Source: Chloroflexota bacterium (GTDB lineage Bacteria; Chloroflexota; Limnocylindria; Limnocylindrales; CSP1-4). Taken from it: DNA of 64,000 nucleotides. Below the pieces are notes generated by a model. The model saw only the letters and a list, made by a program, of their open reading frames with translations, was not told where the DNA came from and made no database searches. Below are positions 1 through 15,550 of this stretch, one piece after another. Position numbers and translations under genes: made by a program. Within the stretch, counting starts at the first letter, position 1; the number at the start of each line of letters is the position of its first letter. The stretch lies in assembly GCA_019637815.1 (NCBI GenBank), contig JAHBUZ010000003.1, positions 1 to 64,000 on the forward strand, in the 5' to 3' direction.

Positions 1-805
1 TGCCCGGCGAGTCGTCGACCTCGATGCCATCGGCGAGGTACGGCAGCGACTCCGACCCGTCGTCCCGGGTGCGGATGACGTTGGCGCTGATCCGGAACCG
101 GGAGTCATCGATGTCGATGCCCTGGCTGCCGGAACCATCGCCAACGTCGTATGCCGCGTGCAGGTAGCGGATCGAGTTGCCGTGGATGACGCCCCGGGAG
201 TCGTCGACGTCCATGCCATCGCTCCGGAAGTCCCGGATGAGGTTCGATGAGATGCGCACCCGCCGGGATTCGCGGAGGCCGATCCCGTCGGTGTAGCCGC
301 AGTCGAGGGTGGCCGTGCCGATGGGCCGGATGTGGGTGCCCATGATGCGCAGGCCGTGCGCCTGGTGCGCGAGGATGGCGTTCTCGTACGTCCCGCAGCC
401 CGGACTGGTCGGGAACACGAGCTCGAGGTGCCGGATGGTCACGTCCTCGACGCCCGCGACCTCCACGAGCGACTCGCCGAAGACGTCGGCCTTGGGCGCG
501 CGGATCCGGGCGGACCACTTGGCCGATGCCCGGAGGGTCAGGCCATCGCGGTCGCCGTTGATGCTCAGCTGACCGGTGTACGTGCCCGGGCACACGATGA
601 TGACGTCGTTCCGGTCCGAGGCGTTGATCGCCGGCTGGACGCTCGTGAAGGCGGTGCCGCTGCCGCCACAGCCGTTCGGTCCCGCCGTCCCGTCGTCATC
701 CACCCAGCGGGTGGTGGTGCCGGGTCCCGCCGCCGCGGGTGCGGCGAGCGCCGCCGTGACCAGTGTCGCGATGCCGGCGATCGTCGCCAGGCGTGTCCGT
801 GCCAT
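1..805 (-). CDS. Secreted right-handed beta-helix repeat protein (3' end beyond window)
   Basis: The reverse strand is open from the ATG at 805 to the left edge, giving about 268 residues. Residues 1-26 look like a classical Sec signal peptide (basic start MARTR, hydrophobic core, ALAAPAAA end). From residue 30 the chain starts RWVDDDGT and continues with irregular 20-25 residue turns rich in I/V-x-N-x-I and DDS-type corners (for example GIDIDDS and GIEVDDS). This is the pattern of parallel beta-helix proteins of the NosD/pectate-lyase-like class. A GGAGG Shine-Dalgarno lies 8 bases before the ATG. Such proteins bind or cleave polysaccharides outside the cell, but no catalytic residues can be assigned here, so the substrate is unknown. 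It lies in the accessory left segment. Fold fairly sure, function not. Confidence 0.75.
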   Translation of the reverse strand, partial: MARTRLATIAGIATLVTAALAAPAAAGPGTTTRWVDDDGTAGPNGCGGSGTAFTSVQPAINASDRNDVIIVCPGTYTGQLSINGDRDGLTLRASAKWSARIRAPKADVFGESLVEVAGVEDVTIRHLELVFPTSPGCGTYENAILAHQAHGLRIMGTHIRPIGTATLDCGYTDGIGLRESRRVRISSNLIRDFRSDGMDVDDSRGVIHGNSIRYLHAAYDVGDGSGSQGIDIDDSRFRISANVIRTRDDGSESLPYLADGIEVDDSPG

Positions 806-969
806 CTATGACCTCCGAGGACCATGCACGCCCATGCATCTCCGTGTCATGGGCGACGGTCAGGGTGGGTGACCGCGTCGGCAGTGTCAAGCGAACGGAT
901 GGGTCGGGGGCTCCTCGGCGATGATCCCAGAGCGTCCCTGGGGCTGCCGTCAGGTGCCACGACGCGGCC

Positions 970-1596
970 TCACGAGTCCGGGAACCCCGTGATCGCCCGC
1001 CGGACCAGGCCGGGTACATCGAGGTCATCGTCGGGAGGCGGTGGCAACTCGCGGTCGAGGCTCGCGGTTTGCAGGAGCATCTCGCGGTAGCGCGGCCGGT
1101 GGACGATAGGCCGCAGCCACTCCAGCAGGCCCCCTACGTTAGCGACCAACCGACTCGCTTCGGCCTCAGCGATGGATTCGGGAACCAGGACCTCGGGCGT
1201 CGCCGGGTCGATGTCCACGTACAGACCCAGCATCTTCCCGTAGCCCAGGGACCTGACTGTCGTCAACAACTCGCCGAGCCAGGTACCTGGGTCATCTCGG
1301 GACAGCGCGTCCAGCATGTACTGGGCATTGGCGAGCTTGTCATCGTGGCGGCGCAGTCGGCGCAGGAAGCGGGCGACGGTGTAGGGCGTCTCGTTCGGGA
1401 GGCGCGCGAGGGACGCCACGCACATGATGTGCTTGCCGCACTCCTCCAGCGCCAAGACTGCCAGCGAGTGCGCGGTAGGCCAGCGGCCAGCGGCCAGCAG
1501 GAGGTGCGCATCGTCAAGCAGTCGCACGGCGTTGTCGAACGCACTTATCGCCGCGTCGGCCAGGACCTCTGCTGGAAGGTCGACAGTGGGGGCCAT
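970..1596 (-). CDS. AbiV-family abortive infection protein
   Basis: A 208-residue protein whose N-terminal third carries the AbiV signature: a helical stretch, then LLLAAGRWPTAHSLAVLALE followed by ECGK at residues 31-55. AbiV proteins are phage-defence factors first described in Lactococcus, where they stop phage translation. The rest (ARFLRRLRRHDDKLANAQYM and onward) is helical and charged, as usual for the family, and the length is typical. It is transcribed alone on the minus strand, 164 bases downstream of the beta-helix start and about 300 bases beyond the four-gene block, in a segment with other accessory genes. That setting fits a defence cargo gene. Family membership is recognised from the motif; activity against phage is inferred from the family. 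Confidence 0.7.
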   Translation of the reverse strand: MAPTVDLPAEVLADAAISAFDNAVRLLDDAHLLLAAGRWPTAHSLAVLALEECGKHIMCVASLARLPNETPYTVARFLRRLRRHDDKLANAQYMLDALSRDDPGTWLGELLTTVRSLGYGKMLGLYVDIDPATPEVLVPESIAEAEASRLVANVGGLLEWLRPIVHRPRYREMLLQTASLDRELPPPPDDDLDVPGLVRRAITGFPDS

Positions 1597-1842
1597 GACC
1601 GCACATCATGAGGCCCGGCACCTCGGGATGCTGCGCCTACCATCGACACCTGTGATGCGTCCGCAATGCACGGCTCGTCCGTTGTGACACGAGGCCGATC
1701 CCGCAGGCGGGTCCGGCTTGGTAGGGTCCTGTGCGGCAGGGCGCTGCGCGAGCAGGCACATCCCCCACGGATACGCCACCTCCCCAGGTACGCCCTGCCC
1801 CTTCGTCCTCCGGGGCTGCTCAGGCGCCGCGCCACAGAGGAA

Positions 1843-1868
1843 GGCCCGGCACCTCTCGATGCCGGGCC
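1843..1868 (-). terminator. GC-rich hairpin after the four-gene block
   Basis: A perfect 9-bp inverted repeat (GGCCCGGCA / TGCCGGGCC) with an 8-base loop lies 25 bases past the stop of the minus-strand gene ending at 1894. No T-tract follows, so it is at best a non-canonical terminator. A partial copy of the left arm plus loop (GGCCCGGCACCTC) recurs near 1614. Confidence 0.4.
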
Positions 1869-1893
1869 CCTCGGTGTTACGGAATCCGTAGCG

Positions 1894-2385
1894 TCAGGCG
1901 ACCAGGCGAGGCCCCCGTGGCTCCCGCTCCATGAGTCCGACCACCTCGTAGACGGCCAGCACCTCGTAGCCCAGCCCGGCACTGGCCCGCACGAAGTCCG
2001 TGAAGGCCTCGCACCGGGACGGTCGCTGGGACTCCCAGGACCGGACCGAGCGTGGGTCCCTGCCCATGGCGCGGGCCAGCGCAGCGAGTGACATGCCCTG
2101 CTCGCGCCGGAGGAACCCGACGACCGGCCCGAACAGCCCCGGCGACTCGCGGTCGTATCCGGCCACGGCGTCCCTGATGTACGGCACGAGCGGCTCCAGC
2201 CGACGCCGGTCGCGGACCGCCCTGGCCTCGCTCCCTGCCCGGTCGATGGCGTCCCGGGCACCCCGGTCGATGGCCTCGATGAGGGCGTGGGCGACCGCCG
2301 CCTCGTCCCGGTCCGCGAGGTCCGCATCGAGGGTGCCGATGATGCGGGTCCACGGACCGACCGACAGCGTCACGGATACGGTCAT
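1894..2385 (-). CDS. Hypothetical protein with a helix-turn-helix-like segment
   Basis: 163 residues from the ATG at 2385, chosen because it overlaps the preceding stop by four bases (ATGA); a longer frame to 2475 exists but would overlap the neighbour heavily. Residues 95-118 (REQGMSLAALARAMGRDPRS, then VRSW) read like an XRE-type helix-turn-helix, so DNA binding is plausible. The N-terminal 90 residues are helical and charged with no recognised family. It is the last gene of a four-gene overlapping block and may be its regulator. I do not recognise a precise family. Confidence 0.6.
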   Translation of the reverse strand: MTVSVTLSVGPWTRIIGTLDADLADRDEAAVAHALIEAIDRGARDAIDRAGSEARAVRDRRRLEPLVPYIRDAVAGYDRESPGLFGPVVGFLRREQGMSLAALARAMGRDPRSVRSWESQRPSRCEAFTDFVRASAGLGYEVLAVYEVVGLMEREPRGPRLVA

Positions 2386-2750
2386 GCCGTCACCTCCGGT
2401 CGTGGCGCGTCCGGATGCTCGGCCGCGAACGTCTGGGCGGCCACCAGCAGCTCGGCGAGGATGACCTCGCGGCAACGGGAGTGGGCGCGGACCTTGGCCT
2501 GGTCGGCCAGCTCGCGGAGCCGGGTGGCCTGCGAGGGCCGCAGGTCCCGCCAGAGCTGACAGGGCTCGTCGTCCTGGTCGGGCAGGTCGAGCGTGTGGTC
2601 GACGACATCGGCGTACTCGTCGATGGCCAGCTTGAGCGTCTCGTCGTCGTGGTGGACGCTACCCCACCGCGCGTGCCAGTCCGAGAGCGCCTGCTCGATG
2701 TCCTCGATGGTCGGTGTCCACGGCCGGGTGGCCGTCGCTGCGGGGGTCAC
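2382..2750 (-). CDS. Hypothetical protein, third gene of the overlapping block
   Basis: 122 residues from a GTG at 2750 whose GTGA overlaps the stop of the gene before it; its own stop overlaps the next start by four bases. The start VTPAATATRP is followed by an acidic, helical region (TIEDIEQALSDWHARWGSV) and a lysine/arginine-rich C-terminal half. No enzyme motif, signal peptide or membrane segment is visible. The longer open frame to 3164 is arginine- and proline-rich and mostly antisense-like, so I reject it. Function unknown. Confidence 0.55.
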   Translation of the reverse strand: MTPAATATRPWTPTIEDIEQALSDWHARWGSVHHDDETLKLAIDEYADVVDHTLDLPDQDDEPCQLWRDLRPSQATRLRELADQAKVRAHSRCREVILAELLVAAQTFAAEHPDAPRPEVTA

Positions 2751-3073
2751 GCTGCCACCTCCCGGGCCTGCATGACCGCATCGCGCCGGGCGAGCACGCG
2801 TGCGGTGAAGAGCATGACGGCCTGCTCGATGGCGGTCTCCAGCTCCGCCACGACGTCCTGCGAGAGCCAGTCCTCCTCGTCGCGGCCGCCATACCCGAGC
2901 ACCATCCGCTTGCAGTGCTTGTGGAGGTCGCGATAGATGCGCATCGCGCGGGCCTTCGGCTCGCCGTCCTGGTCGGTGGTCATCATGGTCCAGCGCTCGC
3001 GGGCGGCATCCATGAACGGCGCAGGGTCGACCTCGTCGAACGACTGGCGCCAGGCGGACTTGGTCGCGGTCAT
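2747..3073 (-). CDS. Hypothetical protein, second gene of the overlapping block
   Basis: 108 residues, starting MTATKSAWRQSFDEVD at the ATG at 3073, which overlaps the upstream stop by four bases. The protein is soluble, helical and rich in charged residues and methionine (for example RMVLGYGGRDEEDWLSQDV). It has no catalytic motif I can name. The 4-base overlaps on both sides suggest it is made in fixed proportion with its neighbours. Function unknown; a small structural or accessory protein of a mobile element is possible. Confidence 0.55.
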   Translation of the reverse strand: MTATKSAWRQSFDEVDPAPFMDAARERWTMMTTDQDGEPKARAMRIYRDLHKHCKRMVLGYGGRDEEDWLSQDVVAELETAIEQAVMLFTARVLARRDAVMQAREVAA

Positions 3074-3378
3074 CGGGCCAGCCCTCGCTCGTGGACGCGG
3101 GTGATGATGGTCTCGCGGATGAGCCCGTACACCTCGTCGGTGATCCCGCCCTGGCTGACGTCATCGGACCCGTCGCGGGTGAGCCGACCGATGATGTCGG
3201 CGATGGACTCGACGAAGTCGCAGTAGCGGCGCTCGGCCGCTCCGACCCGCTCGCTCGTCGCGGTGCCGTCCTCGTCGAACAGGCCCCGCCACCGGTCCCG
3301 GAGGACCTCGATGCTGATGGCGGGCTGACCGGCCGCCTGCGGCTCCACCTTCGGGGTGGGGGACTTCCTGCGCGTCAT
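3070..3378 (-). CDS. Hypothetical protein, first gene of the overlapping block
   Basis: 102 residues from the ATG at 3378 (MTRRKSPTPKVEPQAAGQPA); a slightly longer start at 3396 is also open. After a basic, proline-rich N-terminus comes a helical acidic region with DRWRGLFDEDG and ERRYCDFVESIADIIGRL. No known domain is evident. It starts 57 bases downstream of the stop of the truncated helicase frame, so a promoter between the two, or readthrough from the helicase promoter, could drive the block. Function unknown. Confidence 0.55.
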   Translation of the reverse strand: MTRRKSPTPKVEPQAAGQPAISIEVLRDRWRGLFDEDGTATSERVGAAERRYCDFVESIADIIGRLTRDGSDDVSQGGITDEVYGLIRETIITRVHERGLAR

Positions 3379-3408
3379 CGCGCACCTCCAGGGCATCGGC
3401 CCCCCGAT

Positions 3409-3455
3409 GCTGGTACCACCAGGGGGCCGGCGGAGTCACGGGGTCCGGTACCAGC
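3409..3455. repeat. 9-bp inverted repeat beside the helicase break
   Basis: GCTGGTACC at 3409-3417 and its exact complement GGTACCAGC at 3447-3455 are separated by 29 bases. They sit in the roughly 70 bases just inside the point where helicase coding similarity stops. The layout resembles recombinase arm or core binding sites at the end of an integrated element, but no integrase gene is visible in the window. Confidence 0.4.
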
Positions 3456-3615
3456 GGACCCAGATACGGTATTCTCGCGTCTTGCCCGAACCCGCGGGTG
3501 CGACGCACAGGACGGGACCCGGTGGCGCCATGGCGGCAGCCCGCTGGTCGGGTGCGAGGCGCGCGAGGCGCTCGCGTACGGATACCGGCAGCTCCTCGCC
3601 GGGCACGATGTCCAT
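3436..3615 (-). pseudogene. 5' fragment of a UvrD/Rep-family DNA helicase, cut after the P-loop
   Basis: From the ATG at 3615 the frame reads 59 residues. Residues 16-47 match the start of superfamily 1 UvrD/PcrA/Rep helicases: LARLAPDQRAAAM is the Q-motif, and GPVLCVAPAGSGKT is the hydrophobic strand plus Walker A. Similarity stops right after GSGKTR; the frame then reads EYRIWVRWYRTP and ends. All other helicase motifs are missing, although these proteins usually exceed 600 residues. The likeliest reading is that DNA to the left was inserted into, or recombined at, the P-loop codons and left this stump. It could also have been reused as a short peptide, which seems unlikely. Confidence 0.7.
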
Positions 3616-3807: not shown

Positions 3808-5877
3808 ATGCGCGCACACCCGACCCGATCGACCATCACCGCCAGCCTGGGGCTGGCCACCACGCTGGCCCTCACGCCCGCTGTCCTCGCACAGTCGCCC
3901 GAGGGCGGCTCACCCGCAGCGCCGCCCGCGGGTCCGGTCACGCTCACGCTGCTCCACAACAACGACGGCGAGTCGAGCCTGCTGCCCATCACGTACTCCG
4001 TCGGGGATGCACGGGAGACGCCGATCCCACTCGCCATCGGCGGTATCGCGGCGTTCGCGGCGGTGACGGACCGCGAGATCGCCGACGCTCGCTCACGCGG
4101 CAACTCGGTCGTCAACGTCTACGCGGGTGATGCGTTCCTGGCGGGCGCCACACTCGCCTGCTCACTGCCACCGCAGCCCGTCGATACGCCCATCTTCGAC
4201 GCGGTCGCGCAGCGACTGCTGCCCTACGACGCACATGTGTTCGGCAACCACGAGTTCGACTACGGACCGGACTTCCTCGAGCGGTTCGTGCGCACCTTCG
4301 CGAGCGACGGGACGCCGGACCAGCCGTTCCTGTCCGCCAACCTCGACTTCGCCGATGAGCCGGGCTGGGCAGACCTGGTCGAGTCGAGCGGCATCATCGA
4401 TGGCGCGCCCGTGGACGGTCGCGTCGTCGCCCGTTCGGCCATCGTTCGTGACGCGACCACGGGCGAGGCGTTCGGCATCGTGGGTGCCACCACCTGGACC
4501 CTGCCCACCATCTCGTCCCCCCGCCAGGTGCAGGTGACCGCCGACCTCGCCGCCACGGCGGCCGCGGTCCAGGCGGAGATCGACGCGCTCGAGACGGCCG
4601 GTATCGACCGGATCATCCTCGTCAGCCACCTCCAGGACGTCGATAACGACAAGGACCTCGTCGCCGCCCTTCGGGGCGTGGACATCGCGGTCGCGGGTGG
4701 CGGCGATGAGCTGCTCATCTCGGACGCCGTGGACGAGTCCGTTCAGCTGCTGCCGGGCGAGGCGCAGGCGCCCGAGGGCGGCTATCCCACGACGCAGACG
4801 GGCCTCGACGGACGGGACGTGCCCATCGTCACCACCGCAGGCAACTACAAGTATCTCGGCCGGCTCGATGTGACCTTCGATGCCGATGGCACCGTCGCGT
4901 CCATCGACACGGCCACGAGCTATCCGCGCCGGGTCATCCCCGATGCCCAGGACGGCGACCAGCTCGCGGAGCTCGATATCACCGATGCGGTGACCCCCGA
5001 TGCCGAGCAGCTCACCCAGGTCGTGGAGCCCGTCCGCGCCTGCCTCGAGACGTTCGCGTCCACAGCCGTGGCACGCTCGGAGGTCGTGCTCAACGTCGCA
5101 CGCGGCAATGGCGACCCGTACGCTCTCGGCGTCCGGAGCGGCGAGACGAACGGCGGCAACCTCGTCGCCGACTCGTACGTCGCGGCGTATGACACCTACG
5201 CACCGACGACCGGTCTCGAGCCGCGTGACCCGAGCAAGGCGCTCGTCGTGGCGGTCCAGAACGGCGGCGGCATCCGGCAGGGCGCCGGCAACGCGCTCCC
5301 GAACGGCGGCGATGCCCCGGGTGACATCACGCGACTCGACACGCTGGGCGTGATGGCGTTCGACAACTACCTCGTGACCATGGATCTCTCGGCGGCCGAC
5401 CTGAAGACCGTGTTCGAGCGCTCGTGCGAGACGCTCGGCGGCGGCCAGTTCCTCCAGGTGTCCCACTTGGCTGTCACGTGCGATATCAGTGCCGAGGTCG
5501 GCTCGCGGGTGACGGACCTTCGATACACGGCGGGCACGCCCGAGACCGATGACGACGTGGCGCTCGTGGACGCGGACGGCCTCGTCCAGGAGGTCGACGT
5601 GCCCGTCCGGGTCATCACCAACCAGTTCACGGCAGCCGGTGGCGACGACTACCCGACCTTCGCCGCCACGCGCCCGACGTCGCTCACCAACGCGTCCGGC
5701 GAGCCGGTGTTCTACGAGCAGGCGCTCCGGGAGTACCTCGAGTCGTTCCCGGCCGATGCCGACGGGCTGCCCACGATCCCGGCGACCGATCCGCGGTCCG
5801 CCCAGGAGACGGGTGAGGGACGCATCACCCTGGTGCTGCCCGCGCCGCCATCGCCGGAGGCGTCGCCCGGGTCCTGA
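3808..5877 (+). CDS. Secreted 5'-nucleotidase / metallophosphatase of the UshA type
   Basis: 689 residues from the ATG at 3808, preceded by a clear AGGAGG at 3796-3801. Residues 1-30 form a Sec signal peptide ending TPAVLAQS. The catalytic metallophosphatase domain has LLHNNDGES, YAGDAFLAG, FGNHEFDYG and ILVSHL. The last metal motif, normally GxHxH, reads GGGDELL here. The C-terminal 5'-nucleotidase domain (about residues 400-640) has QNGGGIRQ and GGGQFLQVSHL, the substrate-binding part. The protein ends in a proline/serine tail without an anchor, so it is probably released. It likely hydrolyses extracellular nucleotides or related phosphoesters for scavenging. It stands alone and is followed by a strong hairpin. 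Family sure, exact substrate not. Confidence 0.88.
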   Translation: MRAHPTRSTITASLGLATTLALTPAVLAQSPEGGSPAAPPAGPVTLTLLHNNDGESSLLPITYSVGDARETPIPLAIGGIAAFAAVTDREIADARSRGNSVVNVYAGDAFLAGATLACSLPPQPVDTPIFDAVAQRLLPYDAHVFGNHEFDYGPDFLERFVRTFASDGTPDQPFLSANLDFADEPGWADLVESSGIIDGAPVDGRVVARSAIVRDATTGEAFGIVGATTWTLPTISSPRQVQVTADLAATAAAVQAEIDALETAGIDRIILVSHLQDVDNDKDLVAALRGVDIAVAGGGDELLISDAVDESVQLLPGEAQAPEGGYPTTQTGLDGRDVPIVTTAGNYKYLGRLDVTFDADGTVASIDTATSYPRRVIPDAQDGDQLAELDITDAVTPDAEQLTQVVEPVRACLETFASTAVARSEVVLNVARGNGDPYALGVRSGETNGGNLVADSYVAAYDTYAPTTGLEPRDPSKALVVAVQNGGGIRQGAGNALPNGGDAPGDITRLDTLGVMAFDNYLVTMDLSAADLKTVFERSCETLGGGQFLQVSHLAVTCDISAEVGSRVTDLRYTAGTPETDDDVALVDADGLVQEVDVPVRVITNQFTAAGGDDYPTFAATRPTSLTNASGEPVFYEQALREYLESFPADADGLPTIPATDPRSAQETGEGRITLVLPAPPSPEASPGS

Positions 5878-5926
5878 AACGGGTCCGGCGCCGTTTCGCG
5901 CCCGACCCCGCGACTCCCATCCCCCG

Positions 5927-5957
5927 GACGCCGGGCGGCCCGCCACCGCCCGGCGTC
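5927..5957 (+). terminator. Strong hairpin after the 5'-nucleotidase
   Basis: A perfect 12-bp inverted repeat (GACGCCGGGCGG / CCGCCCGGCGTC) with a 7-base loop lies 49 bases past the stop at 5877 and just before the uvrC promoter. There is no T-run, as often in G+C-rich bacteria. Confidence 0.6.
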
Positions 5958-5965
5958 GTCACGCC

Positions 5966-5971
5966 TACCAT
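5966..5971 (+). promoter_or_regulatory. -10 box (TACCAT) of uvrC
   Basis: TACCAT ends 7 bases before the GTG start of uvrC, so transcription would begin at or within a base or two of the start codon (leaderless). No clear -35 is seen. Confidence 0.45.
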
Positions 5972-5978
5972 CAGGGGT

Positions 5979-7832
5979 GTGACCCCGCAGCTCGAGCTCG
6001 CCCTCAGGAACGTCCCCGACCACCCTGGCGTGTACCTCATGAAGGACGCCCAGGGGCGGGTGCTGTACGTGGGCAAGGCGCAGAGCCTGCGCAACCGCAC
6101 CCGTCAGTACTGGCAGGCCGGACGCGGCGGCACCACGCCGCCGCTGCGCATCGAGTCAGCCATCGACAAGGTGACGGATCTCGAGTGGACGCTCACCGAC
6201 ACGGTGTCGGAGGCGCTGCTGCTCGAGGCGAACCTGGTCAAGCGTCACCAGCCGCGCTTCAATGTCCGGCTCAAGGACGACAAGAGCTACCCCTTCATCA
6301 AGGTCACCCTCGCGGACGACTTCCCGCGCATCGAGCGGACCCGCAAGCTGCCCGCGGACGGCAGCCGCTACTTCGGGCCGTATGCCTCGGCGAGCAGCGT
6401 GGACGAGGCGATGAACCTCATCCGCCGCCTGTTCCCGTTCCGGACCTGCACCATCGACATCAAGGACGGTCAGCGTGCCCTCGATCGACCGTGTCTGCTG
6501 TATCACATCAAGCGCTGCCAGGGCCCCTGCATCGAGGCCATCGACAAGGAGGCCTACCGCGCCGACATCGAGCAGGTGATGCTGTTCCTCGAGGGTCGCC
6601 AGGAGCAGGTCGCCCGAGCGCTCCGCAAGGAGATGGCGGTCGCATCGGACGAGATGCGCTACGAGCGGGCGGCGGCGCTCCGGGACAAGGTCCGGGCCAT
6701 CGAGCGGACGATGGAGGACCAGAAGATGGCGGGCTTCGCGCGCCGCCAGCTGGACGTGCTCGGCTTCTCGCGTGCCGGCAACCAGGCGGCCGTGCAGCTG
6801 TTCGCGATCCGTGACGGCAAGACCGTCAGCCGCGATGTGTTCCAGCTGGAGAACCTGGGCGATGGGCCGGACGTCGAGGCCCTCTCGGCGTTCGTGCGGC
6901 AGTACTACGCTACGGCGGGCAGCATCCCGCCCAAGGTGCTGCTGCCGATGACGCTGCCGGACGCCGACGAGCTGGAGGTGTTCCTGCGCGAGCGACGGGG
7001 CAGCGGCGTCACCCTGACCGTGCCGCGTCGAGGCGACGGTCGGGCGCTCATGGATCTCGCGGCGCGCAATGCCGCCGAGACGCTCGCCCGGGAGCAGGCG
7101 AAGTGGCTCGCGGACCAGGGCCGCACGCTCGCCGCGCTCGAGGAGCTCGCGAACGCGCTGGGGCTCGCCGCACCGCCGATGCGCATCGAGTGCTTCGACA
7201 TCAGCACCATCCAGGGGGCCTTCACGGTCGGCAGCATGGTCGTGTTCGAGGAGGGTCGGCCACGCAGCGGCGACTATCGACGCTTCCGGGTGAAGACGGT
7301 CGAGGGCACGGACGACTTCGCAAGTCACCGGGAGGTGTTCCGACGCCGATTCCGACGCGCACTCTCGAGCGAGGAGGGGAGTGCCGAGGAGCTTCGCTGG
7401 CGGATGCCGGATCTGGTCATCATCGACGGTGGCAAGGGCCAGGTGAGCGCGGCGCGCGGTGTGCTGGATGATCTCGGACTCCACGACCTGCCGCTGGCGG
7501 GCATCGCCAAGGAGCGCGAGGAGCTGTTCCTGCCCGGTCGTAGCGACCCCATCGTGCTGCCGGCGACCTCGCAGGCGCTGTACCTGGTCCAGCGGCTCCG
7601 CGACGAGGCGCACCGATTCGCGATCACGTACCACCGCCAGGTCCGCGCGAAGGCACAGACCCGCTCAGCGCTCGATGACCTGCCCGGCGTGGGTCCTGCG
7701 CGCAAGCGGGCCCTCCTGCGGGTGTTCGGCTCGTCGAAGGCGCTCAAGAGCGCGACGGTCGAGGAGATGGCCGCCGTGCCGGGGATCGGTCGCGGCCTGG
7801 CCGAGCGCATCCGGGAGCACCTCGACAGCTGA
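5979..7832 (+). CDS. uvrC: UvrABC excinuclease subunit C
   Basis: 617 residues from a GTG placed 7 bases after a TACCAT box. The N-terminal GIY-YIG nuclease domain (GVYLMKDAQGRVLYVGKA, about 18-35) makes the 3' incision. The UvrB-interacting UVR helix pair is near 205-240 (RYERAAALRDKVRAIERTM). The RNase H-like 5' nuclease follows (RIECFDISTIQG near 402; DLVIIDGGKGQ near 478). The tandem helix-hairpin-helix is at 565-617 (LPGVGPARKRALL and VPGIGRGLAERI). Length and domain order are standard. Acts in nucleotide excision repair after UvrAB damage recognition. Monocistronic here, with no uvrA/uvrB nearby. Confidence 0.98.
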   Translation: MTPQLELALRNVPDHPGVYLMKDAQGRVLYVGKAQSLRNRTRQYWQAGRGGTTPPLRIESAIDKVTDLEWTLTDTVSEALLLEANLVKRHQPRFNVRLKDDKSYPFIKVTLADDFPRIERTRKLPADGSRYFGPYASASSVDEAMNLIRRLFPFRTCTIDIKDGQRALDRPCLLYHIKRCQGPCIEAIDKEAYRADIEQVMLFLEGRQEQVARALRKEMAVASDEMRYERAAALRDKVRAIERTMEDQKMAGFARRQLDVLGFSRAGNQAAVQLFAIRDGKTVSRDVFQLENLGDGPDVEALSAFVRQYYATAGSIPPKVLLPMTLPDADELEVFLRERRGSGVTLTVPRRGDGRALMDLAARNAAETLAREQAKWLADQGRTLAALEELANALGLAAPPMRIECFDISTIQGAFTVGSMVVFEEGRPRSGDYRRFRVKTVEGTDDFASHREVFRRRFRRALSSEEGSAEELRWRMPDLVIIDGGKGQVSAARGVLDDLGLHDLPLAGIAKEREELFLPGRSDPIVLPATSQALYLVQRLRDEAHRFAITYHRQVRAKAQTRSALDDLPGVGPARKRALLRVFGSSKALKSATVEEMAAVPGIGRGLAERIREHLDS

Positions 7833-8372
7833 AGGGGACCGTTGCGAAACGCTCGCGCGCTCGGGCGGATGTGCCGAGCACGCGGCAACCAGGTCGTCGC
7901 CTGCCATCGGCGCGCCTGTGCTCGGGCGGATGTGCCGGCGCTGCGACCGGTTCGCTGCCCGTCATCCGCGCTCCCGTGCTGGGTGAGGGCTGCATGGTCC
8001 CGTGCGGGCGGTCGGTTCTTGACATTCCGCCGCACTGGTCGTCGGCTATCCGACTGCGCTGCCAGTTCTGCAGGTCGTCGGGGAGCACCTCACGCTCGCA
8101 TCGTGGTCAGCGACGTGCCATTTCGACGGCCAGTGTGTCGGTATGGCGGATCCGGCCAGATGTCGTCCGGATACGCATCGACCAGTGCGTCGAACTGGCA
8201 GGATCGGCGCGACCAGCGGCTGAGGGCGTCGTCGTGATGAACGGCCGAGGGGCCACCGCGATCGGCGGCTGAGGGCGGATCCAGGGGATCATCGTGATCG
8301 GCGGCCGCCACGCTCGAATGCCCGGGACGACGTGGCCGCACGTTGGTGTGCCAGAGGGCGCATCATCACCTC
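7833..8372. other. Gene-free stretch with repeats
   Basis: 540 bases between uvrC and the SecD-head lipoprotein gene without a convincing gene: the open frames are arginine/serine-rich shadows with no start signals. It holds an 18-bp direct repeat (GCTCGGGCGGATGTGCCG at 7859-7876 and 7920-7937) and the imperfect palindrome described separately. A TTGACA at 8019-8024 has no good -10 partner. Confidence 0.6.
8032..8201. repeat. Imperfect palindrome of about 160 bp
   Basis: GCACTGGTCG (8032-8041) pairs exactly with CGACCAGTGC (8179-8188), and just inside, TATCCG (8047-8052) pairs with CGGATA (8168-8173). A further exact 10-base pair, CTGCCAGTTC (8059-8068) with GAACTGGCAG (8192-8201), crosses the first. 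This could be a structured RNA or the remains of a small non-autonomous mobile element. Confidence 0.4.
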
Positions 8373-9191
8373 ATGCGAAGGATCCGGGGTGGCGTGGCGG
8401 TCCTGCTCGGCGCGCTGCTCGTGGCGGGTTGCTGGCCCATCGGCTGGACGTCGGTCGGGCCGGTGGGGCCGGCTGTCACCGAGCCGCCGTCCTCGTCGGC
8501 GACGCCCGTCCCCAGCGATGCCTGGGGCACGCACGAGATCGTCATCATCCAGCTGACGCCGTCCGGTGGCGCCGCGCTCACCGAGGAGCAGCACGTTGCC
8601 GCCGAACGGGTGGTGCGTGACCGGCTCGCCGCGCTGGGCGTGCCGGGTGTCAGCGTCCGCGCGATCCCCGATGGTCGCCTGCGCATCGATGTCGCGGACC
8701 CCGAATGGGCGGACACCGTCCGGCGACTGGCGACCACGCCCGGCGAGCTGTCGTTCGTGGCGGTCCCGCCCGGATACAGCAACGACGTCCGGCAGGGTGA
8801 GCCGCTCCCCGCGGACATGCCCGTGGAGGTCATCGTGGTGCCTGGACAGATCCTGGAGGCAGCTCCGGGCACCAACGAGTTCGGCATGCTCGCTGTCGAT
8901 CTCCAGCTCGATGACGTGGGTGCCGCAGCGTTCGATGCGTGGGCGGCAGACCACGTGGGTCAGCAGCTGGCGATGGTGCTCGACGGTATCGTGCTGTCGG
9001 CGCCGGTCAGCAATGCCATGCGATACGGAGGCCAGGCCCAGATCACCGGGGACCTGGATGCCCAGGCGATGGAAGAGCTCGCCGCCATCCTTGCGGGCGG
9101 CATCCTGCCGGTCCCCGCCGAGGTGCTGTGGCTGTGTCCCGCGGACGACCCGGCCCCGGTCTGCCCGAGCCCGATGCCCTCGGCGGACTGA
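8373..9191 (+). CDS. Lipoprotein resembling the SecD periplasmic head (P1) domain
   Basis: 272 residues from the ATG at 8373 (a frame 10 codons longer is open). Residues 1-20 are a lipoprotein signal with lipobox LLVAGC, so Cys20 would be lipidated. A proline/serine linker leads to a domain that aligns along its whole length with the P1 region of the SecD encoded 88 bases downstream: shared features include GTNEFG, LAV-L-L, a matching VLDG, SAPVSNA, RYGG and QITG. All SecD transmembrane segments are absent. It may be an auxiliary chaperone-like partner of SecDF or act on secreted chains at the outer membrane face. That role is inference; the paralogy is visible directly. Confidence 0.75.
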   Translation: MRRIRGGVAVLLGALLVAGCWPIGWTSVGPVGPAVTEPPSSSATPVPSDAWGTHEIVIIQLTPSGGAALTEEQHVAAERVVRDRLAALGVPGVSVRAIPDGRLRIDVADPEWADTVRRLATTPGELSFVAVPPGYSNDVRQGEPLPADMPVEVIVVPGQILEAAPGTNEFGMLAVDLQLDDVGAAAFDAWAADHVGQQLAMVLDGIVLSAPVSNAMRYGGQAQITGDLDAQAMEELAAILAGGILPVPAEVLWLCPADDPAPVCPSPMPSAD

Positions 9192-9265
9192 TCCTCCGAC
9201 GCTCGTCCACCGCCACCGACACGCCACCTGACCGCGACCGACCGCGGGCCGGGCCCGCTTTCTGC

Positions 9266-9271
9266 TAGAGT
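9266..9271 (+). promoter_or_regulatory. -10 box (TAGAGT) of secD
   Basis: TAGAGT ends 8 bases before the secD ATG, implying a leaderless secDF transcript separate from the lipoprotein gene. Confidence 0.45.
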
Positions 9272-9279
9272 CCCGCCCG

Positions 9280-10635
9280 ATGCGCTGGGTCCTTCCCCTC
9301 CTGATCATCTCCGTGTTCGCCGCTGCCCTGGTGGCGTCGGCGATGCCGAATCCCAACCCGCGGGCCATCCCGCCGGGCTGCCCCTCGTTCTGCCCGAACC
9401 TGGGCCTGGACCTCGTGGGCGGGTTGCGTGGCGAGTACCGCCTCGTGGCCACCGATGACCAGCCCATCACCCGGGAGATCCTCGAGCAGACCCGGACGAT
9501 CATCGAGAACCGCGTCAACGCGACGGGTGTCGCCGAGCCGAACGTCCTGACCGCGGGCAGCGACCGCATCACCATCGAGCTGCCGGGTGCCGCGGATGCC
9601 GAGGAGATCCGGCGGCTCGTGGGCACCACCGGCCGGCTGGACTTCATCCCGGTGCCAGCACAGTTCGCGGGTTCCGTGAGCCAGGGTTCCCGGCTGCCCG
9701 TGGGCATGCCGGACACGCCGCTCTTCAGCGGCAGCGAGATCGCGAGCGCGACCGCGGGGACCAACGAGTTCGGACAGCTGGCCGTCAACCTGGAGCTCAA
9801 GGAGACCGGTGCCCGCCTGTTCGACGAGTGGGCGGCGCAGAACGTCAACCGGCAGTTCGCCATCGTGCTCGACGGCGTCGTCATCTCGGCGCCCGTCTCG
9901 AATGCCTCACGTTACGGCGGTCGTGCGCAGATCACCGGCAACTTCACGCCCGATTCCATGAACGAGCTCGTGACCGTGCTCAGGTTCGGCTCGCTGCCCC
10001 TGGAGATCGAGGAGGTGGGCTTCAGCAGCCTGTCCGCGACCCTGGGCCTCGGCTTCCTCGCCCAGACCGTGCTCGCGGGCTTCGTCGCCATCGCCTTCGT
10101 GTTCGCGTTCATGCTCATCATGTACCGGCTGCCGGGCGTCATCGCGTGCATCGCGCTGCTGTCCTACGCGATCCTCAACTACGCCCTGTTCCGGACCATC
10201 CCGGTGACCCTCACGCTCGCGGGCATCGCAGGCTTCGTGCTCGCGGTGGGCATGGCGGTGGACGCGAACATCCTCATCTTCGAACGGACGAAAGAGGAGC
10301 TGCGCGCCGGCAAGCCGCTGAACGCCGCCATCGAGGCGGGCTTCAATCGCGCCTGGAGCTCCATCTTCGACGCCAACGTGTCCTCGCTCATGACCGCGTT
10401 CATCCTGTGGTACTTCGGCAGCTCCGTGGTCCGCGGCTTCGCGCTCGTGCTCATCATCGGCATCGCGACCTCCATGTTCACGGCCATCACGCTCAGCCGG
10501 ATGATGCTCCGCTGGGTGGTCAAGCAGCCGTGGGCCCGCAAGGCGTCGTTCTACGGCGTCAAGGAGGAGGAGTTCCTGCTCGCGACGCCACGCTCGCGGC
10601 GCCAGCGGGACGTCGAGGAGGCCAGCGGTGCTTGA
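9280..10635 (+). CDS. secD: Protein translocase subunit SecD
   Basis: 451 residues. The first membrane helix is at residues 3-22, followed by LGLDLVGGLRGEY (the D1 motif, about 46-58) and a periplasmic P1 region with GTNEFG and SAPVSNASRYGG. Five more membrane helices start near residue 250. VGMAVDANILIFERTKEELR (near 322) is the D5 motif that carries the proton-conducting Asp. SecD and SecF use the proton motive force to pull translocated chains out of SecYEG. Start chosen 8 bases after a TAGAGT box. The stop overlaps the secF start by 8 bases. Confidence 0.97.
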   Translation: MRWVLPLLIISVFAAALVASAMPNPNPRAIPPGCPSFCPNLGLDLVGGLRGEYRLVATDDQPITREILEQTRTIIENRVNATGVAEPNVLTAGSDRITIELPGAADAEEIRRLVGTTGRLDFIPVPAQFAGSVSQGSRLPVGMPDTPLFSGSEIASATAGTNEFGQLAVNLELKETGARLFDEWAAQNVNRQFAIVLDGVVISAPVSNASRYGGRAQITGNFTPDSMNELVTVLRFGSLPLEIEEVGFSSLSATLGLGFLAQTVLAGFVAIAFVFAFMLIMYRLPGVIACIALLSYAILNYALFRTIPVTLTLAGIAGFVLAVGMAVDANILIFERTKEELRAGKPLNAAIEAGFNRAWSSIFDANVSSLMTAFILWYFGSSVVRGFALVLIIGIATSMFTAITLSRMMLRWVVKQPWARKASFYGVKEEEFLLATPRSRRQRDVEEASGA

Positions 10636-11764
10636 CATCCTCGGCCAGCGACGCTGGTACTACGCCATCAGCCTCATCGTGGTCATCCCGGGGCTGTTGT
10701 TCACGATCCTCACCCTGGTGCCCAACGGGAACCTCGGGCTTCGCTTCTCCATCGCCTATACCGGTGGCACGGAGTGGACCGTCCACTTCGCGAACGGCGC
10801 ACCGCCACCCCACGATGTCGTGGAGGTCCTGGACGGGATCGGCATGTCCGGATCGGAGGCGGTCACGGTCACACGGGCCGGCCGCGAGTACACCCTCATC
10901 CGGACCTCCGCGCTCGCGCTCGGCACGGGAAGCGGCACCGATGCAGCGCCCGGCGCGTCCCCCGCGCCCGGTGCGTCACCGACCGGATCCGCGACACCGA
11001 CCGTCGCGCCCACACCGGCCGCGTCGGCGACACCGGGGGCCGCGGCATCTCCGGATGCCTCCGGCACCCCCACGGCCTCCGGTACGTCGTCCATCACCGC
11101 CACCGGCAAGCTCGCCGAGGCCAAGACCGCGCTCGAGGCCGAGTTCGGCCCCATCGATGAGGAGCTGGAGCTCCAGACCGTCGGACCCGTGGTCAGCGCG
11201 GAGCTCGTCCAGCAGACGTTCCTGCTCATCCTCATGGGCGCCGTCGGCATCATGGTCTGGATCACGTATCGCTTCCGCGACTTCCGGATGGGCGCCGTGG
11301 CGCTCCTGACGCTGCTCCATGACGTGCTGGCGGTGGTCGGCGTGTTCGCCATCCTGGGCACGTTCGTGGGCATGGAGGTGGACGGACTGTTCGTGACCGC
11401 GTTGCTCACGGTCATCGGCTTCAGCGTGCACGACACCATCGTGGTCTTCGACCGCATCCGCGAGAACCGGCTGCGTCATGCCGGCGAGCCCATCGAGGCC
11501 ATCGCGAACCACAGCGTGCTCCAGACCGCGGGTCGGTCCATCAACAACTCGCTGACCATCATGTTCGCGCTGATGGCGCTGTTCCTGTTCGGCGGCGAGA
11601 CGATCCGGCCGTTCGTGCTGGCGCTGCTCATCGGCATCATCACGGGCACCTATTCCTCGATCTTCACGGCTGCGCCGCTGTTCGTGGACTGGCACCTGTG
11701 GGACGATCGCCGACGTGCCCGTGAGCTCGCGAGCCAGCGATCCGCCCAGACGCGGCCCGCCTGA
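10628..11764 (+). CDS. secF: Protein translocase subunit SecF
   Basis: 378 residues from a GTG at 10628 inside the end of secD. A first membrane helix (about 12-33) leads to the conserved TGGTEW motif. Residues about 98-155 are an unusual low-complexity Ala/Pro/Thr/Ser/Gly stretch (repeats like APGASP and TPTASGTS) inserted in the periplasmic region before the last P1 helix. Five further helices follow, with GFSVHDTIVVFDRIREN (near 261) as the F4/F5 signature and NNSLTIMFALMALFLFGG. Partner of SecD in late protein export. Family certain; the linker insertion is odd. Confidence 0.97.
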   Translation: MLDILGQRRWYYAISLIVVIPGLLFTILTLVPNGNLGLRFSIAYTGGTEWTVHFANGAPPPHDVVEVLDGIGMSGSEAVTVTRAGREYTLIRTSALALGTGSGTDAAPGASPAPGASPTGSATPTVAPTPAASATPGAAASPDASGTPTASGTSSITATGKLAEAKTALEAEFGPIDEELELQTVGPVVSAELVQQTFLLILMGAVGIMVWITYRFRDFRMGAVALLTLLHDVLAVVGVFAILGTFVGMEVDGLFVTALLTVIGFSVHDTIVVFDRIRENRLRHAGEPIEAIANHSVLQTAGRSINNSLTIMFALMALFLFGGETIRPFVLALLIGIITGTYSSIFTAAPLFVDWHLWDDRRRARELASQRSAQTRPA

Positions 11765-11826
11765 CCGCGATCCGGTCGACAAGTCCCGCGTAAGGACGGC
11801 ATACGGCGCGATGCAGGACCGGGACC

Positions 11827-11832
11827 TAGCAT
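11827..11832 (+). promoter_or_regulatory. -10 box (TAGCAT) of recJ
   Basis: TAGCAT ends 8 bases before the ATG at 11841. This supports that start rather than the longer frame from 11715 and implies a leaderless mRNA. Confidence 0.45.
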
Positions 11833-11840
11833 CGGCCCCG

Positions 11841-13613
11841 ATGACCAGTCCGCTCGTGCCCGCCTTCGCCTGGACCGTGCCGGTCGCCCATCCCGTCACG
11901 GACGCGACCATCGCGGACGCCCGACGACGCGGCCTCTCGGCGCGTCTCATCCGCGTCCTGTCGCGGCGCGGGATGGTGGACCCGGTCAGCCTCGCGGCAC
12001 GCTTCGATGCGCCGGACACGGCGCTCCACGACCCGTGGCTGCTGCCGGATGCGGATCGGGCGGTGGCACGCATCCGCCGCGCGATCGAGCAGCGCGAGCG
12101 GGTGCTGGTCCTCGGTGACTTCGATGCCGACGGGCTGACGGGCCTCGCGGTGCTGGTGCTCGCCCTGCGCCACCTGGGCCTGGACACCGAGCCATACGTG
12201 CCCGACCGGTCGGACGAGGGACACGGCCTCTCGATGGGTGCCATCGAGACCGCCGCCGCCGAGGGCCGGACGCTCATCCTCACCGCGGACACCGGGTCCA
12301 CGAGCCACGCGGAGATCGCCGCGGCATCCACGCGGGGCATCGAGGTCATCGTCACCGATCACCATCAGCTGCACGGCGGTCTGCCGGATGCGGTCGCGGT
12401 GGTCAACCCGCAGCGCGCCGACTCGCGATATCCGGATCGCCGTCTATCCGGCTCGGGAGTGGCGTTCAAGGTCGCGCAGCTGCTCCTGGCGGACCGACCG
12501 GGTGGCCCGGAGCTCGCGCTCACGTTCGCGGACCTCGCGGCCATCGGTTCCATCGCGGACGTGGTGCCCATGGACGGCGAGAACCGGGCGATCGCCCGGC
12601 TGGGGCTCACGCGGCTGGCGAGCGGGACACGGCCCGGGCTCGCGGCACTCCTGACCTCGGCGGGTGTGGCGCCGGAGCGTGTCAGCCCGGAGACGGTGTC
12701 CTTCGCGCTCGCGCCACGCATCAACGCCCTTGGTCGTGTCGGTCACGCGCTCGATGCGGCACGGCTCCTGCTGGCCGACGATACCGCGGAGATCGAGCGG
12801 CTCGTGACGGTCATCGAGGCGGCCAACCTGGAGCGACGCGCGCTCATGAACGCGGCGCTCGAGGAGGCGCGTGCCGCGCTCGGCCCCGATGACGGCGCGC
12901 CCGTGCTCGTCGTCGCCGGCCCGTGGGCACCGGGCGTCGTGGGGCTCGTCGCGGGACGGCTCGCGGATCGTATGGGTCGTCCCGCGGTGGTGTTCTCGAC
13001 GCTCGTGGATCCGTGGCGTGGCTCCGCGCGCAGCGCGGCGGGGTTCGACCTCGCGGCGGCGTTCAGCGCGAATGCCGAGCTGTTCGAGCGGTTCGGGGGG
13101 CACGCGGCGGCCGCGGGCTGCCACCTGCGCGCCGAGCGCATCGACGCGTTCCGGGTCGCCATGACGCGTGCCGTGACGGAGGCACGACCGGAGGGTCCGG
13201 CACGCCCGACGCTCGCCCTGGACCTCGCCGTCAGCGCAGGATCCGTGGATCACGTACTCTTGGCCGAGCTTCGACCGCTGGACGGTGCCGGTGACGAGCC
13301 GCCGCTCCTGGGTATCACCGGGTTGACCGTCACGCGCGTTCGGGCCGCGACGGGTGGTCACACCCAGCTGACGCTGCGCAGGGGGATGGACGTGCTGGAC
13401 GGCATCTGCTTCGGCCGCACCGATCTCGTGGACATGGTCCACGAGGGTGACGCCGTCGATGTCGCGGGTCGTCTCCGGAGTCGACGCTTCCAGGGCCTCG
13501 AGACGCTCCAGATCGAGGTGGAGGACGTGGCGCCCGCCGGACATCTGCGCGCCATCTGGCGCGAGCGCGACGCAGCGCCCGTGACGATCTCGACACCGGT
13601 GGCCGTGGCATGA
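11841..13613 (+). CDS. recJ: Single-stranded-DNA-specific 5'-3' exonuclease RecJ
   Basis: 590 residues. The DHH phosphoesterase core has GDFDADG (residues 93-99, motif I), LTADTGSTSH (motif II position), TDHHQL (172-177, the DHH motif with metal-binding Asp/His) and NALGRVGHALDAARLLL. The DHHA1 domain has FGGHAAAAGCHL (near 417-428). A C-terminal OB-like domain follows. RecJ degrades single strands in mismatch repair, RecFOR recombination and base excision repair. Motif II reads TADTG instead of the usual TVDNG, a conservative variant. The stop overlaps the next start by four bases (ATGA at 13610). Confidence 0.95.
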   Translation: MTSPLVPAFAWTVPVAHPVTDATIADARRRGLSARLIRVLSRRGMVDPVSLAARFDAPDTALHDPWLLPDADRAVARIRRAIEQRERVLVLGDFDADGLTGLAVLVLALRHLGLDTEPYVPDRSDEGHGLSMGAIETAAAEGRTLILTADTGSTSHAEIAAASTRGIEVIVTDHHQLHGGLPDAVAVVNPQRADSRYPDRRLSGSGVAFKVAQLLLADRPGGPELALTFADLAAIGSIADVVPMDGENRAIARLGLTRLASGTRPGLAALLTSAGVAPERVSPETVSFALAPRINALGRVGHALDAARLLLADDTAEIERLVTVIEAANLERRALMNAALEEARAALGPDDGAPVLVVAGPWAPGVVGLVAGRLADRMGRPAVVFSTLVDPWRGSARSAAGFDLAAAFSANAELFERFGGHAAAAGCHLRAERIDAFRVAMTRAVTEARPEGPARPTLALDLAVSAGSVDHVLLAELRPLDGAGDEPPLLGITGLTVTRVRAATGGHTQLTLRRGMDVLDGICFGRTDLVDMVHEGDAVDVAGRLRSRRFQGLETLQIEVEDVAPAGHLRAIWRERDAAPVTISTPVAVA

Positions 13614-15550
13614 CGTCGCCGCGCGATCCGCTCGACGCTCGCGGGGTGCCGCAGCCACGCTCGTCCTGGTCCTCGCCACCGGATCCCGCCGCTGGTGGCT
13701 GGCCCGCGTCCGGCGCCGACCCGTGGCAGGGCGACAGCGCCACGACCGGCTGGGCGACGCCCGTGTCGCCACCGCCGGGGAGCGGTGGAGGCTGGAGTGC
13801 GCCCGCAGACCCCGGCACGAACGCCTGGGCGACGCCGCCCGCCGATCCCGGCACGAACGCCTGGGCGCCACGTGGCGGTCCGGACCCCGGCACCGGCTCG
13901 AACACGTGGGCAGCCCGACCAGGCGACCCCGGCACGAACGCCTGGGCGCCGCGTGGCGGTCCGGACCCCGGCACCGGCTCGAACACCTGGGCCCAGCCAC
14001 CCGCCGATCCCGGCACCGGCGGCTGGCCCGCGCCACCGACCCAGCCCGCCGGCACGGCCTGGTCCACGCCGTCCCAGCAGCCCGGCGGCTGGCCGATGCC
14101 ACCGACCGGCGGCACGGTCGACCCGGGCTGGCAGGCCACCGGCTCCAGCAGCTGGCAGTCACCCAGCGCCGCCCCGCACGGCTCGCCCGTCGCACCCGGT
14201 GGCGCGCCGCCTCGCCGCGGTCGGGGTGATCGCCGTCCCTCGCCACCACTGCTTGCCCCGTTCGTGGCGCTGCTGGGACTCATGGTCGCCGCGGGCGGGA
14301 CCGTGTTCGCCGCCCAGAGCTTCGGTCTCGTGGGGGGTGCGGCGGCCGGCCCCACGGCGACCGCGGATGTGACGGCGCCCCCGTTCGAGACCGACGACCC
14401 GTTCGCCACGGACGACCCCTCCGCGACCGCGGGGCCGCCCGCGACCCCCACGCCCGCTCCGACGGCGTTCGTGACCCCGCCACCCAACGAGCAGGCGGCC
14501 ATCACGGGCACGCTCCTGTACACGCGTGGCGGCCAGATCTGGGCCGTCAGCGGCACCCAGTCGAACCGCATCACGGGGAGCGGCACGGACTACATGCCGG
14601 TCTGGTCCCCGGACGGACGCCGGATCTACTTCGTCCAGCGGACGCTCCAGCGCGGCAAGACCGCGCCCTGGGGCAAGGGGACGTCACGGGCCGACACCGT
14701 CACGCACCTCGCGACCGATGTGATGGCCATCCGGGCGGACGGCAGCGACCGGACCCGCTTGCTGCAATCGATGCAGCGGACCGGCCAGGGCCAGTGGTCG
14801 ACGGTGGCCATCCAGCCGGACATCGCCCCCTCGGGGGACACCTTCGTGCTCGCGAGCGACTTCGGCTACGTGCCGTTCGCTGACTACGACTACGGGCCAG
14901 TCGTGCTCGCGACCATGACCTCGCGCGGCAGGAACCTCAAGACGCTGGGCATCGAGTCCGCGAAGGGCGCGGGCGGCAAGGACCTCGGTCACAACGACCC
15001 TGACTGGAGCCCGGACGGCCGGTTCGTGGCGTTCACGTACAACAACCGCGCGGGCGGCCAGGGTGCCGGCGTGCCCCGCATCGGGATCGTGCGGGCGCCG
15101 TTCCGGAACAAGAGCCCCAACCTGTCACCGCGCAACCGCGGCTATGCGAACCCCGATTGGTCACCGGACGGCAAGTACCTCGCCGTGGAGCGGGTGACCA
15201 CGGACCGGCGGGACATCGTGATCCTCGATCCGAGCAACTGGGAGGAGGTCGGCCGGCTGACCACGGATGGTCGGAGCTTCGCCCCTGTGTGGTCGCCCAA
15301 TGGCGACCAGATCGCGTATCTCCACGCGAACGGCACCAAGATCGACGTGCGGGTGATGACCCTCGAGCAGGGTGCGACCGGTCCCACGCTCCGCCTCGAC
15401 CAGGCGGTCACGGTGGACGGCGGCGTGGACCCGGACTCGCCACCGGCCTGGTTCATCCCGCAGGACCAGCGCACGAACCTGCCGACGCTCGTCCCGGAGG
15501 ATCCGGACGCGACCGAGCCGGCCGCGGACGAGGCCACGCCCGAGCCGTGA
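13610..15550 (+). CDS. Membrane-anchored PD40 (TolB-like) beta-propeller protein with Pro/Gly/Trp-rich N-terminus
   Basis: 646 residues. Residues 1-200 are a low-complexity cytoplasmic region with repeats built on DPGTNAWA and DPGTGSNTWA, two copies of which are almost identical at DNA level (about 13848-13910 and 13928-13990, period 80). One membrane helix lies at about 209-231, followed by an Asp/Thr/Pro linker. The outer domain (about 300-610) has PD40 propeller blades: MPVWSPDGRRIYFV, DPDWSPDGRFVAF, NPDWSPDGKYLAV and APVWSPNGDQIAYL. Topology is N-inside, propeller outside. It is coupled by overlaps to recJ (ATGA) and pyrF (GTGA). Binding or scaffolding at the cell surface is likely, with the partner unknown. 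Confidence 0.85.
   Translation: MTSPRDPLDARGVPQPRSSWSSPPDPAAGGWPASGADPWQGDSATTGWATPVSPPPGSGGGWSAPADPGTNAWATPPADPGTNAWAPRGGPDPGTGSNTWAARPGDPGTNAWAPRGGPDPGTGSNTWAQPPADPGTGGWPAPPTQPAGTAWSTPSQQPGGWPMPPTGGTVDPGWQATGSSSWQSPSAAPHGSPVAPGGAPPRRGRGDRRPSPPLLAPFVALLGLMVAAGGTVFAAQSFGLVGGAAAGPTATADVTAPPFETDDPFATDDPSATAGPPATPTPAPTAFVTPPPNEQAAITGTLLYTRGGQIWAVSGTQSNRITGSGTDYMPVWSPDGRRIYFVQRTLQRGKTAPWGKGTSRADTVTHLATDVMAIRADGSDRTRLLQSMQRTGQGQWSTVAIQPDIAPSGDTFVLASDFGYVPFADYDYGPVVLATMTSRGRNLKTLGIESAKGAGGKDLGHNDPDWSPDGRFVAFTYNNRAGGQGAGVPRIGIVRAPFRNKSPNLSPRNRGYANPDWSPDGKYLAVERVTTDRRDIVILDPSNWEEVGRLTTDGRSFAPVWSPNGDQIAYLHANGTKIDVRVMTLEQGATGPTLRLDQAVTVDGGVDPDSPPAWFIPQDQRTNLPTLVPEDPDATEPAADEATPEP

What the first reader, a model, noticed from the sequence alone, without database searches (positions are those of the whole stretch)
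1..3615. Accessory segment joined exactly at the P-loop codons of a UvrD/Rep helicase gene
Seen: helicase similarity runs from the Q-motif into APAGSGKTR and then stops dead at about 3478, followed by an unrelated 12-residue tail and the accessory genes (four-gene block, AbiV, beta-helix). The P-loop coding DNA is highly conserved between species, which makes it a good integration target. Inference: an integrative element used the Walker A codons of this helicase gene as attachment site and truncated it. The rest of the helicase should lie at the far end of the element, left of this window.
Basis: partly seen in the sequence, partly recalled or inferred. Interest (0 to 1): 0.6.

Follow-up and report, generated by a model that had tools for sequence, protein, structure and literature searches.

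The report
Mobile element inserted inside repair helicase
A mobile DNA element has cut a bacterial DNA-repair helicase gene in two at the codons for its ATP-binding loop; the missing half of the gene and the enzyme that probably did the cutting were found elsewhere in the same genome.

Summary
The helicase gene stops at window 3478-3489, inside the P-loop codons. The rest of it starts with the same 12 bases at the end of another contig of this genome (C16). Beside it, reading away, is a large serine recombinase (LSR) that runs off the contig end. Joining the halves over the 12 bp gives an uninterrupted 586-aa UvrD-like helicase. Relatives carry the intact gene in the order uvrB-uvrA-helicase-uvrC; here that order is split between C16 and C23.

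In another genus (G012), a 76%-identical LSR sits in the same gene at the same serine codon of GSGKT. There the whole 12.6-kb element lies on one contig, in the opposite orientation. Less similar LSRs (G035; G173 of another family) sit in the same gene at a second motif, VGDDDQ. The gene is a repeated LSR target.

LSR elements inside conserved genes are a known kind. What I did not find in print is this helicase as target, and the natural orientation flip at one serine codon (TCG here, AGC in G012), which fits the published rule that the central dinucleotide sets orientation. Integration and excision are inferred. The middle of this element is not in the assembly.

The parts
3439..3615 (-). 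N-terminal stump of a UvrD-like helicase (Q motif to GSGKT), then a tail read from the element
   Evidence: the remainder is on G000:C16
3478..3489 (-). 12-bp core shared by both junctions, encoding part of GSGKT; predicted crossover dinucleotide TC at 3489-3488 (first two bases of the Ser codon)
1..3477 (-). visible arm of the integrated element; it runs off the contig start
3070..3378 (-). first gene of the four-gene block, 102 aa, no family match
2747..3073 (-). second gene, 108 aa, no family match; found in no other of 161 genomes
2382..2750 (-). third gene, 122 aa, no family above cut-off
1894..2373 (-). fourth gene, 159 aa, weak helix-turn-helix matches below cut-off
970..1596 (-). AbiV family abortive-infection protein
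1..805 (-). secreted-looking beta-helix protein, cut by the contig start
5979..7832 (+). uvrC, the chromosomal flank; in intact relatives uvrB-uvrA-helicase-uvrC lie together

Best explanation
An integrative element with a large serine recombinase inserted into the UvrD-like helicase gene between uvrA and uvrC. Shown: both junctions, the shared 12-bp core, the recombinase gene at one end, the restored frame, and intact relatives. Inferred: the recombinase paired attP of a circular element with attB in the helicase gene and exchanged strands at the first two bases of the P-loop Ser codon (TC of TCG). Also inferred: the insertion inactivates the helicase, because the C-part has no full P-loop and the N-part is about 59 aa. 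A related recombinase did the same in G012 at AG of AGC. Its element points the other way, as expected if the central dinucleotide alone sets orientation.
For: The remainder begins SGKTTTLVARIAW at C16:71891. The LSR has PF00239 and PF07508 above cut-off. Shared core TCGGGCAAGACG. The joined gene is 586 aa without a stop and 58% identical to the G001 orthologue over 570 aligned positions. uvrB-uvrA-helicase-uvrC are on one contig in G001 and G006. In G012 both junctions and a full-length LSR (PF00239, PF07508, PF13408) lie on one contig, with a 2-bp shared core AG. The outer attP half-sites of G000 and G012 agree at 14 of 22 bases, reached by 0.04% of 20,000 shuffles; of 11 core offsets tried, only the Ser-codon one gave this. 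Of 92 family genomes with an orthologue row, 79 read straight through the Walker A site. G035 and G173 carry LSRs at another motif of the same gene. The orientation rule is cited in PMC3783163.
Against: The middle of the element is missing: the C-terminal half of the LSR was not found in this genome, so C16 and C23 are joined by inference. In G000 the crossover could lie anywhere in the 12 bp. The attB dyad at the Ser codon is weak (7 of 18 in G000, 4 of 18 in G012), and in G012 attP other centres score as high or higher. The inner (recombinase-side) attP half-sites agree at only 9 of 22 at the Ser-codon offset and 11 of 22 at another offset. The orientation rule rests on two elements at Walker A. 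No reads, excision product or activity were seen.
Confidence: 0.93

Rival explanations
1. Assembly or binning artefact: the two contig ends come from different organisms or are chimaeric.
For: Metagenome-like genome in 61 contigs; both contigs end inside the element.
Against: The halves share an exact 12-bp core, restore the frame, and split a gene order that is intact in relatives. An independent case with a 76%-identical LSR at the same codon lies on one contig.
Confidence: 0.03
2. Plain decay: the helicase was truncated by deletion or an unrelated insertion.
For: The stump would not make a helicase, and the one accessory gene sought is not shared with relatives.
Against: The remainder is intact (546 codons) and sits next to an LSR.
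Confidence: 0.02
3. Intervening element of the skin/SPbeta/fdxN type: it excises under some condition and restores the helicase (same anatomy, different biology).
For: Both halves remain open frames in G000, G012 (to the contig end) and G035. Contig ends in G064 and G140 fall at or beside the same codon, which might mean that filled and empty sites coexist. Elements of this kind are described in papers seen in a search listing.
Against: Insertions are sporadic (2 of 107 family genomes shown at Walker A) and differ in orientation, as in recent mobile elements. Open frames also fit recent insertion. The contig ends may reflect strain variants or conserved DNA.
Confidence: 0.1

Closest known systems
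Large serine recombinase elements with attB in conserved protein-coding genes (Durrant et al., PMC10083194; passages read)
   Same: LSR at the element end, short core, conserved gene disrupted, and different LSRs converging on one gene. [quoted passage not shown] three relatives of this LSR sit in a yifB-like gene that I take to be the same (gene name recalled).
   Different: The target here is a UvrD-like helicase; the word helicase does not occur in the main text of that paper. Its supplement was not read.
Bxb1 and phiC31 integration polarity (Ghosh 2003, Smith 2004, seen only as citations in PMC3783163)
   Same: The central dinucleotide sets the orientation of integration.
   Different: There, as I recall, it was changed by experiment. 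Here two natural elements at one codon differ in orientation, with TC against AG as the predicted core on the helicase strand.
Serine-recombinase intervening elements (SPbeta in spsM, skin in sigK; abstracts in a listing; fdxN element recalled)
   Same: Precise interruption of a gene by an element; the best NCBIfam match of the G012 LSR is XisF of the fdxN element (72 bits, cut-off 375, not met).
   Different: No evidence of programmed excision here.

Membership tests
Large serine recombinase integrative element | Recombinase with resolvase, recombinase and zinc-ribbon domains | tested here: met
   All three above cut-off in G012. In G000 the first two are above cut-off and the third lies beyond the contig end.
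Large serine recombinase integrative element | Recombinase gene next to an attachment junction | tested here: met
   G000:C16 core at 71880-71891, LSR from 71934; G012.
Large serine recombinase integrative element | Both junctions share a short core, and joining gives the empty site seen in relatives | tested here: met
   12 bp in G000, 2 bp in G012, 8 bp in G035.
Large serine recombinase integrative element | Quasi-symmetric attP centred on the crossover | tested here: inconclusive
   G000 attP: TC is the best centre, 10 of 18. G012 attP: AG 9 of 18, not the best.
Large serine recombinase integrative element | Catalysed integration and excision | not testable with these tools
   Needs a bench assay.
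Prophage | Virion or packaging genes | tested here: inconclusive
   None among seven predicted proteins of the complete G012 element (Pfam). In the window arm only a weak tail-spike match of the beta-helix protein. The middle of the G000 element is unseen.
Integrative conjugative element | Relaxase and conjugation genes | tested here: inconclusive
   None in seven predicted G012 element proteins; the G000 middle is unseen.
UvrD/Rep helicase (target gene) | UvrD N- and C-terminal domains | tested here: met
   Intact G027 orthologue: PF00580 168.5 bits, PF13361 84.1 bits. It does not reach the cut-off of any NCBIfam equivalog.

The most novel reading that the evidence does not exclude
The helicase gene beside uvrA and uvrC is a reversible switch. 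LSR elements enter at codons for catalytic motifs (P-loop Ser, GDDDQ) and leave precisely under stress, turning a repair helicase off and on. The host's synonymous choice of P-loop Ser codon (TCN or AGY) decides which element can enter and which way round.
Probability: 0.1. Interest if true: 0.7.

Novelty: new member of a known kind. Interest (0 to 1): 0.45.

Why it matters
It adds a new, repeatedly used LSR target in a little-studied Chloroflexota lineage, with predicted att pairs for recombinases unlike those in the phage collection (best listed hit 32% identical). It also gives a natural pair in which element orientation appears to be set by a synonymous serine codon of the host gene. And it gives a case where a mobile element disables a repair helicase next to the excision-repair genes, so the effect on repair can be tested.

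Tried and rejected
Assembly chimaera and plain decay were considered and rejected (see rivals). Other routes that gave little: no LSR relative was found in the viral contigs; one was found in the genome collection, a 3,898-bp contig that is the reverse complement of G131:C85. A phylum-wide search of 400 genomes added only one more distant LSR, 36% identical, in G179, which I did not follow. The 706-aa protein of the G012 element is absent from G000, so the middle of the G000 element could not be located that way. The window's element proteins have no tblastn match in the other loci fetched by then. Literature searches gave no paper that I recognised from its listing as describing LSR insertion at a UvrD P-loop; I read passages of two papers only.

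Results against or beside my reading: 15 of 107 family genomes gave no orthologue row in my reading. In that count I used the printed rows that I judged orthologous (52% identity or more), left out weaker paralogue rows and most separate C-terminal pieces, and the printed list was cut. Contig ends in G064 and G140 fall at or beside the Walker A codon, and in G140 and G003 at VGDDDQ. Conserved DNA shared between co-assembled species could cause this, so I do not count them as insertions. Ser codons were read in 47 of the 50 genomes tried (31 AGY, 16 TCN by the first codon in sorted order; G078 holds copies of both classes; three genomes not matched). Three LSR relatives (G090, G150, G035:C47) lie after gene ends and their att sites were not worked out.

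Full report
The observation. The window is bases 1-64000 of contig C23 of a 4.07-Mb genome in 61 contigs. On the minus strand, a UvrD N-terminus runs to GSGKT and then changes into an unrelated tail that ends at 3436. Intact relatives read GSGKTTTLVARIAW there.

The missing half. A search of the genome for UvrD domains gave matches on four contigs. On C16 the gene starts at SGKTTTLVARIAW and runs on for 546 codons. The longest string shared by the two junction regions is the 12-mer TCGGGCAAGACG, exactly at both breaks (window 3489-3478; C16 71891-71880). Next to the C16 junction, reading away from it, is a serine recombinase with Resolvase and Recombinase domains that runs off the contig after 282 codons. 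Joining the flanks over the core gives a 586-aa helicase without a stop, aligned to the G001 protein over 570 positions at 58% identity. In G001 and G006 uvrB, uvrA, the helicase and uvrC lie on one contig; in this genome uvrB, uvrA and the helicase C-part are on C16 and uvrC is on C23.

A second element at the same codon. Among 121 genomes, G012 has a 76%-identical recombinase. Its contig holds the N-stump, the recombinase, about 12.6 kb of element and the continuing helicase. The junctions share only AG, the first two bases of the Ser codon AGC. In G012 the recombinase lies beside the N-stump and points with the helicase; in this genome it lies beside the C-part and points away. So the elements are inserted in opposite orientations. 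If the G000 crossover is put at TC, the first two bases of its Ser codon TCG, the outer attP half-sites agree at 14 of 22 bases (shuffle frequency 0.0004). The ten other offsets gave 9 or fewer for that half. The inner halves agree at 9 of 22 there and at 11 of 22 at one other offset. The two attB sites agree at 38 of 52 bases. The title of a paper cited in PMC3783163 states that Bxb1 orientation depends solely on the central dinucleotide, and its text says that only parallel alignment gives efficient strand exchange (passages read). Of 47 genomes read, 31 have AGY and 16 TCN at this codon. The polarity idea is an inference from two elements.

A second site in the same gene. In G035 an 8.6-kb element with a different LSR (34% identical to the G012 one) and a DNA methyltransferase splits the helicase at VGDDDQ, with an 8-bp core ACGACCAG, all on one contig. 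In G173, of another family, an LSR 44% identical to that of G035 lies next to a helicase C-part that begins with the same ACGACCAG; in G035 the LSR lies beside the N-stump, so the sides are opposite. G068 and G078 carry one and two extra N-terminal stumps that break at or just after the same motif, followed by an intact copy; G013 has different sequence after it up to its contig end. In two searches of 177 class genomes I count 11 LSR places: 4 in this helicase, 3 in a yifB-like gene, 3 after gene ends, 1 at a contig edge.

How common. Of 107 family genomes, 92 gave an orthologue row; 79 read through Walker A and 85 through VGDDDQ. Insertion at Walker A is shown for 2 of 107.

Cargo. The window arm carries AbiV, a four-gene block of which one gene, the only one sought, is found in no other of 161 genomes, and a beta-helix protein. 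The G012 element carries a 706-aa protein with a winged-helix start, an ion-channel-like protein and an IS1595 transposase. The cargos compared are not shared. No virion or conjugation genes were seen in what was scanned, but the G000 middle is missing.

Organism. G131, same family, contains GenBank PMIE01000031.1, titled a Chloroflexi MAG. The class Limnocylindria is my guess from recall.

Verdict. A new member of a known kind, LSR integrative elements in conserved genes, with a new recurrent target and a testable polarity rule.

Noticed in passing
L109 (G078:C6) 7180-16150; L108 (G068:C57) 5533-10932: Extra N-terminal copies (about residues 1-241) of the helicase, 76-84% identical to each other and to the intact N-parts compared, break at or just after VGDDDQ with cargo between and an intact copy inside: as if elements carried their own helicase 5' part and restored the gene.
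   Followed up: partly
L165 (G173:C179) 5455-7724: LSR beside a helicase C-part at the VGDDDQ site in a different family; side opposite to G035.
   Followed up: partly
L051 (G022), L052 (G100), L121 (G149): Related LSRs inserted in a yifB/comM-like gene, at PGEVTLA or PGEVSLA in G022 and G100 and at NLAPA in G149.
   Followed up: partly
L137/L107 (G064), L135/L122 (G140), L125 (G003): Contigs end at or next to the two LSR target sites of the helicase (no overlap in G064 or G140, the pairs tested); either mixed filled/empty sites or assembly breaks at conserved DNA.
   Followed up: no
L048 9251-11371: 706-aa winged-helix protein of the G012 element has 52%-identical copies elsewhere in G012, perhaps further elements of the same kind.
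   Followed up: no
L108 7693-8958: TIR-domain-like gene between the G068 stump and the intact helicase (weak PADLOC matches).
   Followed up: no
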